From Phycisphaeraceae bacterium (GTDB taxonomy: Bacteria; Planctomycetota; Phycisphaerae; Phycisphaerales; Phycisphaeraceae), in assembly GCA_007119405.1 (NCBI GenBank), contig SKPT01000263.1:1-6508 (forward strand): DNA of 6,508 nucleotides, in the 5' to 3' direction. Below the pieces are notes generated by a model that saw nothing but the letters and a program-made list of their open reading frames with translations, ran no database searches and had not been told where the DNA came from. The translations under genes and the position numbers were made by a program. Below, piece after piece: positions 1 through 6,315 of the stretch. Numbering within the stretch: the stretch's first letter is position 1; each line of letters starts with the position of its first letter.

Positions 1-1332
1 AAGCGGTGGGTGCGGTATCGCTACTACGTCGATGGCGGCTACTACCGCAGCGGCAAGGCCGTGTGCAAGCCGACGAACGTACCTGCCGACGGCCTCGACG
101 CGTTCGTCATCGAGCAGGTGGGCCAGGTGCTGATGGGCGACCACGCCGGCCGGGAGCAGGCGGTGGAATCGTTCGTGCAGGCGGCGATGGCCGGCGACGA
201 GCGGAACGATGCCGACGACGCCGCCGAGCTTGAGAAGCAGGTTGTGGCGCTGGACAAGCGCATCCAGACCACCGTGGCCATGCTGGCTGACCCGGACTTC
301 GAGGGCCTTGACGAGCTGAAAGCCACGCTGGCGGGCCTGAAGCGGCGACGCGATGGGCTACGTGAGCGCCTGGAGCAGCAACAGCCCGAGCAGGTGGCGC
401 CGTACACGGAGGCGGACCTGCGCGAATGGGCCGACGACCGCTTCCGCCGCTTCGAGCAGATCACCAAAGGCAAGGCCAGCTTCGACGAGACCCGTCAGCT
501 CGTGCAGGCGTATTGCGATCGCATCGTCATCGACCCGCACGCCCGTCGCGGCACGCTCTACCTGCCCGCCGACGCCTTCGCGTGTCTGGAACGTGAATTT
601 ACCCCTCGCGTGGCGCTCGGGGAGTGGATCGCGGCGCGCAAGACCCTGCTTGCCAAGGAAAAGGCGCACATGCGTCAGGGCGACGCGATCGCCGCCGAGC
701 GACGCGCCCTCCCATGGGTCAAAGTCGAGAAGGACTACCTCTTTGAGGCGGAAGACGGGAAACGGACGCTCGCCGAGCTGTTTGATGGGTGCAGCCAACT
801 CATCGTTCACCATCTCATGTATGCGCCGGACTGGGACGCCGCCTGCTCCGGCTGCTCCTTCCAGGCGGAGCATATTGACGGCCCCGCGCAACACCTCGAG
901 CATCACAACGTGCGGATCGTGGCCGTCTCCCGCGCGCCGATCGACAAGCTCCTGGCCTACCGCAGGCGCATGGGCTGGCGCTTCGCATGGGTGTCCTCCC
1001 TCGGCAGCGAGTTCAACTACGACTTCCATGTCTCCTTCACACAGGAGCAATTGGCTGAAGGGAGAGTGAACTACAATTTCGGGACGATCGACATCGCTCC
1101 ACGCTATCGAAGTGAAGAGCTACCCGGCATCAGTGTGTTCTTCAAGGACACCGCGGGGCAGGTCTTTCACACCTACTCAACCTATGCCCGCGGGCTCGAC
1201 ATCGTTCTGGACGCCAATCACTATCTCGATCTCACCCCGGAAGGTCGGAATGACGCCGTGTATCCGAACTGGCCCCGCCGTCACGATGAGTACGGAGACC
1301 GGGACGCCGCGACGTCCTGCGGCGGCTCGTGA
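1..1332 (+). CDS. Serine recombinase C-terminal region fused in frame to a DUF899 (thioredoxin-like) protein; 5' end outside window
   Basis: The frame is open from base 1, and the GTG at 10 lies inside a domain, so the true start is upstream of the window. Numbering from that GTG, residues 1-40 resemble the end of the zinc-ribbon domain of large serine recombinases (RYRYYVDGGYYRSGKAVC, then a VPADGLDAFVIEQV-type segment). One position that is usually Cys (YYVC) is Asp here. Residues ~70-127 are a charged coiled coil, and ~160-195 match the usual recombinase tail (QAYCDRIVIDP, LYLPADAF). From ~199 the protein becomes DUF899: EWIAARKTLLAKEK, ERRALPWVKVEKDYLFE, CSGCSF (Cys279/Cys282), VSRAPIDKL, GWRFAWVSS, FNYDF, VFHTYSTYARGLD and WPRRHDEY, then an 11-residue tail. 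DUF899 proteins have a thioredoxin-like fold and no firmly established reaction. The DUF899 part looks complete and undamaged. The join has no stop or frameshift. Whether one fused protein is made, or DUF899 starts internally (GTG at 610), cannot be settled here. Confidence 0.9.
   Translation, partial: KRWVRYRYYVDGGYYRSGKAVCKPTNVPADGLDAFVIEQVGQVLMGDHAGREQAVESFVQAAMAGDERNDADDAAELEKQVVALDKRIQTTVAMLADPDFEGLDELKATLAGLKRRRDGLRERLEQQQPEQVAPYTEADLREWADDRFRRFEQITKGKASFDETRQLVQAYCDRIVIDPHARRGTLYLPADAFACLEREFTPRVALGEWIAARKTLLAKEKAHMRQGDAIAAERRALPWVKVEKDYLFEAEDGKRTLAELFDGCSQLIVHHLMYAPDWDAACSGCSFQAEHIDGPAQHLEHHNVRIVAVSRAPIDKLLAYRRRMGWRFAWVSSLGSEFNYDFHVSFTQEQLAEGRVNYNFGTIDIAPRYRSEELPGISVFFKDTAGQVFHTYSTYARGLDIVLDANHYLDLTPEGRNDAVYPNWPRRHDEYGDRDAATSCGGS
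586..622 (+). other. Recombinase/DUF899 junction with imperfect dyad and possible internal GTG start
   Basis: Recombinase-like sequence fades out at about 590 and DUF899-like sequence begins at about 604-620. An imperfect inverted repeat spans 602-622: CCCCTCGCG and CGCTCGGGG around a 3-base centre, with 7 of 9 positions paired. A GTG codon at 610 is in frame and would give a DUF899 protein of normal-looking N-terminus (VALGEWIAARK). No good Shine-Dalgarno sequence precedes it. The junction could be an element boundary or attachment-site scar, because large serine recombinase genes often lie next to their own attachment site. That role is inference; the dyad also falls in GC-rich coding sequence where such matches arise by chance. 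Confidence 0.35.
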
Positions 1333-1382: not shown

Positions 1383-1835
1383 ATGGGAACCACAACAACC
1401 CAATCCGCAGCCGAAACCGAGATTCGCGACCTGGTGGACCGCTATTTGGATGCGATCCGCGCCTCTGACCCGGAGCGCATCGCCTCGCACTACGCGCCCG
1501 ACATTCTCGCGTTCGACGCCATCGCACAATTGCAGTTCAAAGGGGTGCAAGCATACAGGAAGCACTGGGAAGCATGCATCGCCATGTGCCCGTCGTCGGG
1601 GATGACCTTCGAGCTGCACCAGCCGAGCATTGCGGTCAGCGGCGACGTCGCCTTCGGGCACTGGCTCTGCCGGTGCGGCCCGGGGCCGGATGAGTCCGGC
1701 AAAGCACAAGCCTGTTGGATGCGCAGCACCATCGGCTTCCGCAGAACGGGGGGCAAGTGGGTCATCGTGCATGAGCACTGGTCGGCGCCGTTCGATCCGG
1801 AAACCAGCAAGGCGCTGTTCGATCTTCAGCCGTGA
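1383..1835 (+). CDS. SnoaL/NTF2-like (DUF4440/SnoaL_3-type) small protein
   Basis: The 150-residue product has the pattern of a single NTF2-like/SnoaL-like domain. An N-terminal helix pair (EIRDLVDRYLDAIRASDPERIASHYAPD, residues ~13-40) is followed by the FKGVQAYRKHW helix (~52-62). Strands then end in GFRRTGGKWVIVHEHWSAPFD (118-138), the usual hallmark of the SnoaL_3/DUF4440 group. These cone-shaped folds act as polyketide cyclases, isomerases, dehydratases or simple ligand-binding domains. Nothing in the sequence fixes the reaction. No signal peptide is visible, so it is probably cytoplasmic. The ATG at 1383 leaves a 50-base gap after the DUF899 frame and has only a weak purine-rich leader (GAAAG). 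It leads a co-directional run of small proteins ending in an ECF42-type sigma gene. Free-standing SnoaL domains beside ECF sigma genes are noteworthy because ECF41 sigma factors carry such a domain fused at their C-terminus. Confidence 0.88.
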   Translation: MGTTTTQSAAETEIRDLVDRYLDAIRASDPERIASHYAPDILAFDAIAQLQFKGVQAYRKHWEACIAMCPSSGMTFELHQPSIAVSGDVAFGHWLCRCGPGPDESGKAQACWMRSTIGFRRTGGKWVIVHEHWSAPFDPETSKALFDLQP

Positions 1836-2980: not shown

Positions 2981-3403
2981 ATGAAAGTCATGGTCCTGGT
3001 CAAGGCCAGCCCCAAGTCCGAAGCGGGCGAGATGCCCAGCGAGCAACTGTTCGCGGAGATGGGGAAGTTCAACGAGGAACTGGAGCGTGCCGGCATCCTG
3101 CTCGCGGCGGAAGGGCTGAAGCCCAGCTCCAAAGGCGTGCGCGTCCACTTTTCGGGGACAAGCCGCACCGTCATCGACGGCCCGTTCGTCGAGACGAAGG
3201 AACTCGTCGCCGGTTTCTGGCTCTGGCAGGTGAGCTCGATGCAGGAGGCGATCGACTGGGTCAAGCGCTGCCCCAATCCGATGCCAGACGATTCCGAGAT
3301 CGAGATCCGGCCCGTCTTCGAGTGTGAAGATCTCGCCGAGCTTTTGACGCCGGAGCTGCGCGAGCAGGAGGAGCGCCTGCGCGCGAAGATCGAGAAGCGG
3401 TAG
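2981..3403 (+). CDS. YCII-related DGPF-domain protein (ECF42-associated type)
   Basis: The 140-residue product carries the YCII-related/DGPF signature: MKVMVLVKASPKSEAGEMPS at the N-terminus, LAAEGLKPSSKGVRV (41-55), then VIDGPFVETKELVAGFWLWQV (64-84) with D66-G67-P68-F69. The MQEAIDWVKRCPNPM segment and an EIRPVFECEDL end follow, also typical. The start is ATG 2981, behind AGGGGAG (2969-2975); an in-frame GTG upstream at 2939 would add 14 non-family residues. DGPF proteins have a ferredoxin-like alpha/beta fold. Their biochemical activity is unknown, although YciI relatives have a proposed hydrolase-type His-Asp pair. They are the classic neighbours and reported targets of ECF42 sigma factors, and the next gene here is one, 85 bases downstream. 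The last 25 residues are a charged helix (ELREQEERLRAKIEKR). Confidence 0.95.
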   Translation: MKVMVLVKASPKSEAGEMPSEQLFAEMGKFNEELERAGILLAAEGLKPSSKGVRVHFSGTSRTVIDGPFVETKELVAGFWLWQVSSMQEAIDWVKRCPNPMPDDSEIEIRPVFECEDLAELLTPELREQEERLRAKIEKR

Positions 3404-4801: not shown

Positions 4802-4837
4802 CCACCGCGGTGGCGCTGAAGGCCTTTCGTCAGGCCT
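4802..4837 (+). repeat. 12-bp perfect palindrome and adjacent 6-bp hairpin after the sigma gene
   Basis: CCACCGCGGTGG (4802-4813) is a perfect palindrome. Seven bases on, AGGCCT (4820-4825) and AGGCCT (4832-4837) enclose TTCGTC as a 6-bp stem. Both lie in the 130-base gap between the sigma gene (stop at 4751) and the metallophosphoesterase (start at 4882). No T-tract follows, so an intrinsic terminator is doubtful. The palindrome could be an operator for the downstream gene. The remainder of the gap shows no recognisable promoter. Confidence 0.35.
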
Positions 4838-4881
4838 GGCCCACGATGTGCTCGCAGGTTATGATGCTCGCTGGAGATCAC

Positions 4882-5691
4882 ATGAGCCCGATCCGCATCG
4901 CCATCCTCGGTGACGCCGAGCCCAAGCCCGAGCCGGTGTTCACCCACACCGCCGCGGCTGTCGAGGTGATCAACCGTCTTGATGAGCAGGCGCCGATCGC
5001 CTTCGTCGCAGGCACCGGCGACATCGCCCACAAGGGGGCGCTGGCCCAGTACGACGCGGTCAGCGAGCATCTGTGTGCCCTGCGCCCGCCGCTGCTGCCC
5101 ATCCTCGGCAACGAGGAGCTTATGGCCGAGAATGGCGCCGAGCGCCTGCTGCGTTACGCGGCGAAGTGGAACGGTGGCGGTCCTGAGGACGAAAGCGGGC
5201 GCGGCTTGTCGTATACCCGCCGCGCGGCGGGACACCTGTTCGTGTTCGCCTCGGCGATGGACGGCGGCAAGGAGCTCAACGACCACGAGATCGACTGGAT
5301 CGAAGCGCAGTTGATGCAGAGCCCCGGCCTTCCCGCCATTCTCTTCACGCACAACGCGCCGCCGGGGCTTTTCCACCCCCGCGGTGCGATGCAGCGGCCG
5401 GCGCTCAACGAGCGGATCCTGGCGCGGGAAGACGTCGTCGCCACCTTCTCCGGCCACCTGCACATGAATCTCGACGAGTGGCCGGGCCACGCCCGTTGTG
5501 ACCGCGGTGTGCACCACGTCCATGTCCCGGGACTGGAGCGGACGAAGCTCGGAAGCTGTCACGTGCCGCGCTTCCGCCTGCTGACGATCGAGGGGCATCG
5601 TTTGAGCGTCCAGACCTACAACCTGGCGGCGCACCGCTTCGAGCCTGAGCACGAGCTGACATTCGCTTCGGCGCCGGCGGTAAGCCGCTGA
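4882..5691 (+). CDS. Calcineurin-like metallophosphoesterase with non-canonical motifs
   Basis: The 269-residue product has the ordered motifs of the calcineurin-like phosphoesterase superfamily, dinuclear-metal hydrolases of phosphomono- or diesters. These are IAILGDAE (D11, motif I), GTGDIAHKG (G46-D47, H50, motif II), LPILGNEEL (G76-N77, motif III), ILFTHNAPPG (H157, motif IV) and FSGHLHMN (G191-H192-L193-H194, motif V). Two positions are unusual: motif I reads D-A-E where D-x-H is common, and motif III reads GNEE instead of GNHE/GNHD, so the usual catalytic His is Glu78. No signal peptide or membrane segment is seen, which suggests a cytoplasmic enzyme. Start ATG 4882 has GGAG 5 bases upstream (4873-4876). 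A longer in-frame GTG start at 4810 would run through the palindromes and add 24 non-family residues. It is separated from the sigma gene by 130 bases and may be an independent unit. Substrate unknown; altered motifs make activity uncertain. Confidence 0.9.
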   Translation: MSPIRIAILGDAEPKPEPVFTHTAAAVEVINRLDEQAPIAFVAGTGDIAHKGALAQYDAVSEHLCALRPPLLPILGNEELMAENGAERLLRYAAKWNGGGPEDESGRGLSYTRRAAGHLFVFASAMDGGKELNDHEIDWIEAQLMQSPGLPAILFTHNAPPGLFHPRGAMQRPALNERILAREDVVATFSGHLHMNLDEWPGHARCDRGVHHVHVPGLERTKLGSCHVPRFRLLTIEGHRLSVQTYNLAAHRFEPEHELTFASAPAVSR

Positions 5692-5919
5692 GGCTCGCGA
5701 ACTGCCCGGAGGCCCCCGGTCACCCGGAGCGCCACCGATACAGGCCGCACCCCGCACCCCGCCCGACGCCAGCCCGAACCGGGCAAGCTCACTCGGCGCC
5801 CCCCGTCAGGGCGCGATACACTCGTGCCGTCAAGCTGCCTGGGCCGTCACATCAGGTCTGTATCACCGGGCGTGAGCGTTGGCGCCATGTTGACGACTCG
5901 TACCATGGGAGCACCGATC
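5692..5919 (+). other. GC-rich noncoding gap with small hairpins
   Basis: This gap lies between the phosphoesterase and the lipoprotein gene. It contains a tandem pair GCACCCC GCACCCC (5747-5760), a hairpin GCCCG-AAC-CGGGC (5772-5784) and a second hairpin GCGCCC (5796-5801) with GGGCGC (5809-5814). Neither hairpin is followed by a T-run. The lipoprotein frame stays open upstream to 5824 with ATGs at 5887 and 5905, but I regard 5824-5919 as leader because the signal peptide and the ribosome-binding site (GGGAG, 5907-5911) both point to ATG 5920. A TACACT at 5817-5822 is a weak -10-like match without a -35 partner. Confidence 0.5.
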
Positions 5920-6315
5920 ATGTTGGGGAAATGCCAAGGCTTCGGGGTTGGGCTTACCGTAATCGCCGTGATGATGCTGGCCGGCTGCCAGGGGCCGGAG
6001 GATGTCGAGCGCCTGAGCGCGGAGCTGGAGATCGCGCAGCTAGAGCTGGAGGAGGCGCAGCGCGAGCTGGAGCAGAAGCGGGGAGCCCTGGAAGAGGGCG
6101 CGCAGCGCGTGGATGAGCTGACCGAGCGGGTCGAGCAGCTCGAAGCCGATTTGGCCGAGGCGCGTCAACAACGCGAGGCGATCGAGAGGCAATTGGCCGA
6201 GGCCCGCGAGCAGATCGAGGAGCTGCGCACGGAACGCGACGCGGCGCGCGGTCAACTCGCGGCGGCCATCGAAAGCATCGAGCGCCAGCTCGCGGAGCTG
6301 CGCGGCGAGGACTGA
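5920..6315 (+). CDS. Small lipoprotein, almost entirely coiled coil
   Basis: The 131-residue product begins with a lipoprotein signal peptide: a short n-region with Lys4, hydrophobic core FGVGLTVIAVMM, and lipobox L20-A21-G22-C23. Cleavage and lipidation at Cys23 would leave a mature chain of 109 residues anchored in a membrane. The next residue is Gln, not Asp, so by the enterobacterial rule it would go to the outer membrane; that rule may not apply in this organism. From ~29 to ~125 the chain is an uninterrupted heptad coiled coil. Positions 36, 43, 50, 57, 64, 71, 78, 92, 99, 113 and 120 are Leu, Val or Ile at seven-residue spacing, with partners at 67, 74, 81, 88, 95, 102, 109 and 116. 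Only two core breaks (Arg85, Arg106) occur. There is no C-terminal Lys as in Braun's lipoprotein and no peptidoglycan-binding domain. A structural, spacer or tethering role is inferred. GGGAG (5907-5911) with 8-base spacing supports ATG 5920. Confidence 0.85.
   Translation: MLGKCQGFGVGLTVIAVMMLAGCQGPEDVERLSAELEIAQLELEEAQRELEQKRGALEEGAQRVDELTERVEQLEADLAEARQQREAIERQLAEAREQIEELRTERDAARGQLAAAIESIERQLAELRGED
6022..6072 (+). repeat. 21-base periodic repeat encoding heptads in the lipoprotein gene
   Basis: GAGCTGGAG occurs at 6022-6030, 6043-6051 and 6064-6072, exactly 21 bases (seven codons) apart. GCGCAG recurs at 6034 and 6055 with the same spacing. Farther on, TTGGCCGAGGC occurs at 6151 and 6193, 42 bases (two heptads) apart. 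DNA-level identity at the heptad period suggests growth by unit duplication or strong codon convergence. Confidence 0.6.

What the first reader, a model, noticed from the sequence alone, without database searches (positions are those of the whole stretch)
1..1332. Serine recombinase C-terminus fused in frame to a complete DUF899 protein
One uninterrupted frame links the zinc-ribbon/coiled-coil tail of a large serine recombinase to a full-length, well-preserved DUF899 thioredoxin-like domain. I know of no described family with this architecture. Explanations: (a) a working fusion, in which a redox-type CxxC domain could influence recombinase assembly; (b) an integrated element whose recombinase gene ends at the attachment site inside the 5' end of a DUF899 gene; (c) a deletion joining neighbouring genes, or an assembly chimera. 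The recombinase side is seen only in part.
Basis: partly seen in the sequence, partly recalled or inferred. Interest (0 to 1): 0.7.

Follow-up and report, generated by a model that had tools for sequence, protein, structure and literature searches.

The report
Mobile-element recombinase joined to host gene
A mobile element, probably a small parasite of bacterial viruses that usually sits inside virus genes, has inserted into an ordinary bacterial gene so that its recombinase and the host protein read as one protein; its relatives look like an undescribed variety of virus-embedded satellites.

Summary
In detail: one frame (1-1332) joins 207 codons of a large serine recombinase (LSR) to DUF899. 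A 95%-identical complete LSR, P0004, agrees with the window up to that codon, then ends in a phage capsid-protein C-terminus. In this family the LSR frame runs across its own attachment site, so the interrupted target supplies the C-terminus: capsid, terminase, tail tube, tape measure, methylase or, here, DUF899. In five relatives with both ends held, the run shared by attL and attR starts exactly at GA; the window's join is at GA (622-623). Complete relatives are 10.1-11.3 kb, lie inside late genes of phage genomes, and in the best-studied ones carry methylase cargo, a regulator, their own protease-capsid gene, an AAA primase/helicase and the LSR; no terminase, portal or tail gene was found inside. 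They work like helper-embedded PICIs (PMC10111431) but use a serine recombinase. Downstream, the window matches a chromosomal cluster of a Phycisphaerales relative, so I read it as an off-target chromosomal insertion. The element itself lies outside the window; satellite and helper roles are inferred.

The parts
1..621 (+). C-terminal 207 codons of a large serine recombinase (zinc ribbon, coiled coil, attP left arm); its N-terminal ~380 residues lie outside the window
   Evidence: PHROG 95; 95% identity to P0004
594..621 (+). Proposed attP left arm inside the recombinase coding sequence (28 bp, length assumed from relatives)
   Evidence: by analogy with the arms analysed in five relatives; not tested for the window itself, whose right arm is missing
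622..623 (.). Proposed 2-bp GA crossover core, first two bases of the GAG codon
   Evidence: shared run of attL and attR starts at GA in 5 of 5 relatives; P0004 has Asp (GAY) and the window Glu (GAG) at this codon
622..1332 (+). DUF899 gene from about codon 12-17 of its relatives to its stop; native start codon absent
   Evidence: Pfam PF05988; alignment
1383..1835 (+). SnoaL-like protein, next gene of the host cluster
   Evidence: Pfam; 84% identical and in the same order in L187
1944..2435 (+). 3-dmu-9_3-mt (PhnB-like) protein, host cluster
   Evidence: Pfam; 82% identical in L187
2470..2901 (+). Second 3-dmu-9_3-mt/glyoxalase protein; no match in L187
   Evidence: Pfam; not returned
2981..3403 (+). 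YCII-related protein, host cluster
   Evidence: Pfam; 86% identical in L187
3489..4751 (+). Sigma-70 factor with DUF6596, host cluster
   Evidence: Pfam; 82% identical in L187

Best explanation
The window starts inside the right end of an integrated mobile element. The element's LSR gene has no stop before its attachment site: its last codons form one arm of attP and the frame runs on through a GA core. The LSR recombined attP with a GA-containing site near codon 12-17 of a chromosomal DUF899 gene, so the LSR now continues in frame into DUF899, while the DUF899 start should lie at the far end of the element, in front of the LSR's native tail. Relatives show the usual targets: late genes of phage genomes, where 10-11 kb elements with their own protease-capsid gene, AAA primase/helicase, regulator and methylase cargo sit inside capsid, terminase, tail-tube or tape-measure genes. 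I read these as helper-embedded phage satellites and the window as an off-target chromosomal insertion of one. SHOWN: the join, the fixed break point in the family, GA at the ends of five relatives, split targets, element content, downstream synteny, and a database protein matching a predicted attP form. INFERRED: that the window's element is of this kind, that the core in the window is GA, that excision restores the helper gene, and that a helper packages the element.
For: P0004 and the window agree to ...RVALG and then differ. Near-identical LSRs with different tails break at the same point: P0172/P0175 97.9%, P0126/P0128 91.9%, window/P0004 94.1% over 202 columns. Interrupted targets continue beyond the far end of the element: terminase to and from residue 297 in L127, L128, L132; also tail tube L126/L133, tape measure L135, capsid L138. 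attL/attR share a run starting at GA in 5 of 5 elements. Predicted attP form of L128 matches P0174, 98.8% over 603 aa. Element genes. The window pairs with P0004 (100/100) in a set of 11 rows (99/86) that includes the complete capsid-inserted element L138. Downstream order DUF899-SnoaL-PhnB-YCII-sigma also in L187.
Against: The window holds one end only; upstream genes and attL are unseen. No DNA is held for P0004, so its agreement with the window is known for protein only. No second LSR-DUF899 join was seen. 43 of the 120 listed relatives have unclassified tails. The attP arms of L132 show no centred inverted repeat better than chance (1121 of 2000 random pairs as good). No experiment on excision, helper dependence or packaging exists for this family to my knowledge.
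Confidence: 0.72

Rival explanations
1. The junction is a true LSR integration, but the element in the window is an ordinary prophage, an integrative element or a small LSR transposon, without satellite biology.
For: The upstream part is not in the window and no genome is held. Wider LSR relatives lie at tRNA genes (9 of 10 loci that I chose for their tails).
Against: The nearest LSRs with DNA stand beside a protease-capsid gene: L138 and L185 next to capsid and AAA, L117 joined to capsid remnants.
Confidence: 0.17
2. Assembly chimera of an LSR contig and a DUF899 contig.
For: The contig begins inside the LSR, reads cannot be checked, and no second LSR-DUF899 join was listed.
Against: The break coincides with the break point of the family, with GA in the same codon phase as in the five relatives, and the frame is kept.
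Confidence: 0.05
3. A selected, working fusion in which the DUF899 redox domain regulates the recombinase.
For: The frame is intact and DUF899 is constrained (dN/dS 0.10 against L187).
Against: Related LSRs join many unrelated proteins or antisense sequence at the same point. Nearly all divergence from L187 may predate the insertion, so the constraint says little about the fused state.
Confidence: 0.02
4. The relatives are not satellites but phages or defective prophages nested in others, with the capsid gene a leftover.
For: Own capsid genes; no helper experiment; unknown small genes may hide packaging functions (3 of 10 proteins without Pfam match).
Against: Five precisely delimited elements of 10.1-11.3 kb share the capsid-LSR order and, where an AAA gene was seen, capsid-AAA-LSR; resident terminase, portal and tape-measure queries found nothing inside them.
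Confidence: 0.25

Closest known systems
Helper-embedded PICIs (HE-PICIs), Tommasini, Mageeney and Williams 2023, PMC10111431
   Same: 10-20 kb elements inside prophage late genes, repeated switching among late-gene sites, own capsid gene in the type element, and occasional off-target chromosomal copies (28 reported)
   Different: Tyrosine integrases only with a word search for serine giving 0 hits; here a serine recombinase with a GA core, its frame running through attP, and both sense and antisense insertions
Capsid-forming PICIs (cfPICI), mentioned in PMC11389934 (passages)
   Same: Element carries its own capsid gene
   Different: cfPICIs are recalled to carry a fuller packaging and head module; no terminase or portal was found inside the present elements
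PLE satellites of Vibrio cholerae (PMC6002521, listing only)
   Same: Satellite that uses a large serine recombinase
   Different: No embedding in a helper's late genes is known to me (recalled); chromosomal element against a lytic phage
Multi-targeting large serine recombinases, PMC10083194 (passages)
   Same: Near-identical LSRs at different target genes
   Different: [quoted passage not shown] window/P0004 shows two

Membership tests
Large serine recombinase | Resolvase, Recombinase and zinc-ribbon domains in one protein | tested here: inconclusive
   All three Pfam domains are listed for P0004, 95% identical to the window; the window holds only the C-terminal third, PHROG 95 E 8e-15, zinc ribbon below cut-off
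DUF899 | Match to PF05988 over the whole profile | tested here: met
   289.5 bits against a cut-off of 27, profile 8-224 of 224
HE-PICI | Element integrated inside a prophage late gene | tested here: met
   Met by relatives L126, L127, L128, L132, L135, L138; not met by the window, whose target is a chromosomal gene
HE-PICI | Integrase of the tyrosine clade described | tested here: not met
   The integrase is a serine recombinase; the paper says tyrosine integrases are the only type there
HE-PICI | AlpA beside the integrase and primase zone | tested here: inconclusive
   AAA_25/primase-like gene present in 3 of 3 examined; no AlpA match among the 10 proteins scanned; not all element genes were scanned
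HE-PICI | Excision on helper induction restores the late gene | not testable with these tools
   Only a database protein of the predicted attP form was seen, P0174
cfPICI | Own capsid plus packaging genes (recalled) | tested here: not met
   Capsid present; resident-type terminase and portal queries found nothing inside the elements, though distant ones could be missed
[quoted passage not shown]
   Window/P0004 94%: two targets; the sample is small

The most novel reading that the evidence does not exclude
A second, convergent class of helper-embedded satellites, built on a serine recombinase and found in Planctomycetota. Its attP is part of the recombinase gene, so each sense integration rewrites the recombinase's C-terminus with the target's own protein (about 460 residues of terminase in L127/L128) and excision gives back the native tail of about 22 residues. 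The recombinase thus records its integration state, and the interrupted late gene is withheld from the helper until the satellite leaves. The window is an off-target chromosomal copy.
Probability: 0.4. Interest if true: 0.85.

Novelty: new variant of a known kind. Interest (0 to 1): 0.68.

Why it matters
It would show that satellites sitting inside a helper's late genes arose at least twice with unrelated recombination chemistries, here in a phylum for which my paper searches found no described satellite. It offers natural serine recombinases that occur with very different C-terminal partners, with matched attL and attR (and by inference attB and attP). It also warns that fused recombinase genes in annotation can be integration junctions rather than new domain architectures.

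Tried and rejected
A redox-regulated fusion was considered and set low: no second LSR-DUF899 protein among the 120 best hits listed of 7,204 (only proteins of about 244-775 aa are candidates) or of 489 (about 330-1,051 aa). P0004 first looked like the empty form of the LSR; its tail is a capsid C-terminus. The recurrent tail SSSSHS... first looked native; it is the antisense of the start of a capsid-like gene, whose frame breaks at or just after HEW[LI]ED in 6 of 6 loci of this class examined (the name capsid for that gene is recalled, no family search was run on it). Selection for in-frame fusion is unproven: the seven sense sites that I recognised (capsid 3' end, two terminases, tail tube, tape measure, methylase, DUF899) are in frame, but recognition itself favours in-frame tails, 341 of 618 GA dinucleotides in five target genes have that phase, and out-of-frame sites may hide among the 43 unclassified tails. 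In one search my query for the C-terminal part of the tail tube was out of frame and told nothing; that part is seen in the LSR frame itself, and an unbroken tail tube matching both parts is in L181. In one search the query named portalL116 proved to be a portal-LSR hybrid frame and its LSR-side matches are not portal matches. PDB sequence search with DUF899: no match; with P0004: 8 serine-recombinase entries. A structure of the fusion was requested and was unfinished; no result is used. Phage and plasmid records: only matches under 60% identity (282 and 254 records).

Full report
What is in the window. ORF 1-1332 (+) is open from base 1 and codes 443 aa. Codons 1-207 are the C-terminal third of a large serine recombinase: PHROG 95 integrase E 8e-15, zinc ribbon weak (18.0 bits, cut-off 25.3). 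Residues 205-431 are DUF899, E 2e-86. No genome is held for the window. GC falls gradually, 0.68 at 1-300, 0.65 at 601-900, 0.56 at 1001-1300, which decides nothing.

The break point. A protein search with the fusion (7,204 proteins, best 120 listed) returned DUF899 proteins of ordinary length and one complete LSR, P0004 (601 aa, 95% identical over the LSR part). P0004 and the window agree to ...LEREFTPRVALG (with a few substitutions upstream); the window then reads EWIAARK..., P0004 reads DPRGGIKSKGEA and stops. DUF899 relatives read, for example, M...HPVVSRDEWTAARK. So the window is LSR up to codon 207 and DUF899 from the GAG codon at 622. With P0004 as query (489 proteins with E <= 0.001, best 120 listed), LSRs of this family carry quite different C-terminal tails after one point of the alignment: DNA methylase, two kinds of terminase, Sel1 repeats, HEPN and others (Pfam on 8 of them; 2 of the 8 had no domain in the tail).

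What the tails are. By tail patterns that I wrote, the 120 fall into: capsid 3' end 23, methylase 21, antisense of a capsid-like gene 13, terminase gpA 6, tail tube 6, native tail 4 (P0179 looks like a fifth but was left unclassified), antisense of another capsid 3, Terminase_6C 1, unclassified 43 (rows not proven one by one). P0004's own tail is of the capsid class: the intact resident capsid of G393 ends EPRGGVKAKGEA. Close pairs with different tails confirm a fixed break: P0172/P0175 97.9% identical, P0126/P0128 91.9%, window/P0004 94.1% over 202 columns.

The other end. IMG/VR scans gave 2 loci and 13 loci (one of them weak, 38% over 80 residues, and two the same records as). Genome searches found some LSR match at E <= 0.001 in 146 of 392 genomes of the phylum of the Isosphaeraceae genome G001 and a match at E <= 1e-60 in 32 of 397 genomes of the class of G338. 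Where both ends are held, the interrupted gene continues beyond the far end of the element: terminase to and from residue 297 in 3 of 3 such loci (L127, L128, L132), tail tube in L126/L133 (two records of one element), tape measure in L135, capsid in L138. Other terminase joins (L118, L130, L131, L136, L137) have only the C-terminal half in held DNA. Elements measure 10,066 bp (L135), 10,317 (L128), 10,407 (L132), 10,757 (L127) and 11,307 (L138), and about 11 kb in L126. The run shared by attL and attR starts at GA in 5 of 5 with no leftward extension and is GA alone in L127. The attP arms form an inverted repeat centred on GA that random pairs rarely equal in four (13, 34, 0 and 1 of 2000 for L128, L127, L138, L135) but not in the fifth, L132 (1121 of 2000). 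The window has GA at 622-623 at the corresponding codon. No DNA is held for P0004, so for the window the core is inferred from the protein break and the relatives. A database protein equal to the predicted attP form of L128 exists: P0174, 98.8% over 603 aa; it may come from excised circles or tandem copies.

What the elements carry. L128, between its ends: Eco57I-type methylase, an unknown minus-strand gene, an unknown gene, a sigma-70-like regulator, a protease-capsid fusion (Phage_capsid_4 E 8e-43; PHROG 4523 E 6e-76), an AAA_25 gene (PHROG DNA primase E 4e-38), an unknown gene and the LSR. L138 and L126 show the same capsid-AAA-LSR order. PADLOC finds a type II methylase in 3 of the 4 elements whose cargo I scanned (L128, L138, L126; none in the three L132 proteins). 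Queries with a resident terminase and portal and with a tape measure matched only outside the elements; distant versions could be missed. These facts fit phage satellites that live inside a helper's late gene.

The window's copy. In a tree of 128 LSR C-terminal regions the window pairs with P0004 (100/100), within 5 rows (98/90) and 11 rows (99/86); the 11 are 5 capsid-class, 4 unclassified, the window and the decayed chromosomal copy L117, and include L138. L185 (G643), whose LSR is 73% identical to P0004 over residues 1-350, has a capsid 85% identical to L138's and an AAA gene. Downstream, window SnoaL, PhnB, YCII and sigma-factor genes follow DUF899 in the same order as in L187 (G741), 82-86% identical; the window's glyoxalase (2470-2901) and metallophosphatase had no match there. 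L187 lies on a 562,678-bp contig, the length given for the contig of P0002, Phycisphaerales bacterium AB-hyl4. The target is thus a chromosomal cluster. DUF899 shows no relaxed constraint (dN/dS 0.10; neighbours 0.17, 0.25, 0.11, 0.17), which fits a recent insertion but is a weak test, since most of this divergence may be older than the insertion.

Known kinds. HE-PICIs (PMC10111431: outline, abstract, passages, and the sections on additional HE-PICIs and on attachment sites) lie in 14 sites of nine late genes, use tyrosine integrases only, and have 28 off-target chromosomal relatives. The present elements work like them but fail the integrase criterion. A serine recombinase in a satellite is not new in itself: PLE 1 has one (PMC6002521, start of abstract in a listing). 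Searches aimed at serine-recombinase, capsid-coding, helper-embedded or planctomycete satellites listed no description of this combination (searches list only the best 15); DUF899 with recombinase: no paper. The library holds open-licence PMC papers only. PMC11389934 and PMC10083194 were read in passages.

Limits. The window shows one end of one copy. Helper dependence, excision, packaging and any effect of the foreign C-terminus on the recombinase are inferred. Antisense insertions (L129; six loci) show that a protein fusion is not required for insertion. The more distant tRNA-targeting LSRs show that a recombinase frame running through its attachment site is a wider habit and not unique to these elements.

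Noticed in passing
window 844-855: The DUF899 cysteine motif reads CSGC; five of six DUF899 relatives aligned read CPGC and one CLGC.
   Followed up: no
L089, L090, L091, L093, L101, L103, L104, L105, L111: More distant LSRs end their frame in, or run through, a tRNA gene on the other strand: 9 of 10 loci chosen for their tails hold such a tRNA (7 of the 9 tRNA-Met); L088 had none found.
   Followed up: partly
protein P0188 (974 aa): An LSR-methylase join with an intein-like insert in the methylase part (Intein_splicing E 6.5e-5, below the curated cut-off).
   Followed up: partly
L116:4821-7118 (-) and L117:8190-11019: Apparent deletion remnants: a portal N-half joined in frame to LSR residues from about 162, and an element capsid (residues 1-498) abutting LSR residues from 148.
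   Followed up: no
L128, L138, L126, L132, left part of the elements: The left zone of the elements holds variable cargo: type II methylases in three, a protein with weak DrmC/ZacB-type matches in L138, unknown genes in L132.
   Followed up: partly
window 4810-5691 and 5824-6315: A Metallophos-domain protein and a small coiled-coil protein with a lipoprotein-like start (by eye) follow the sigma factor; the first had no match in L187.
   Followed up: no
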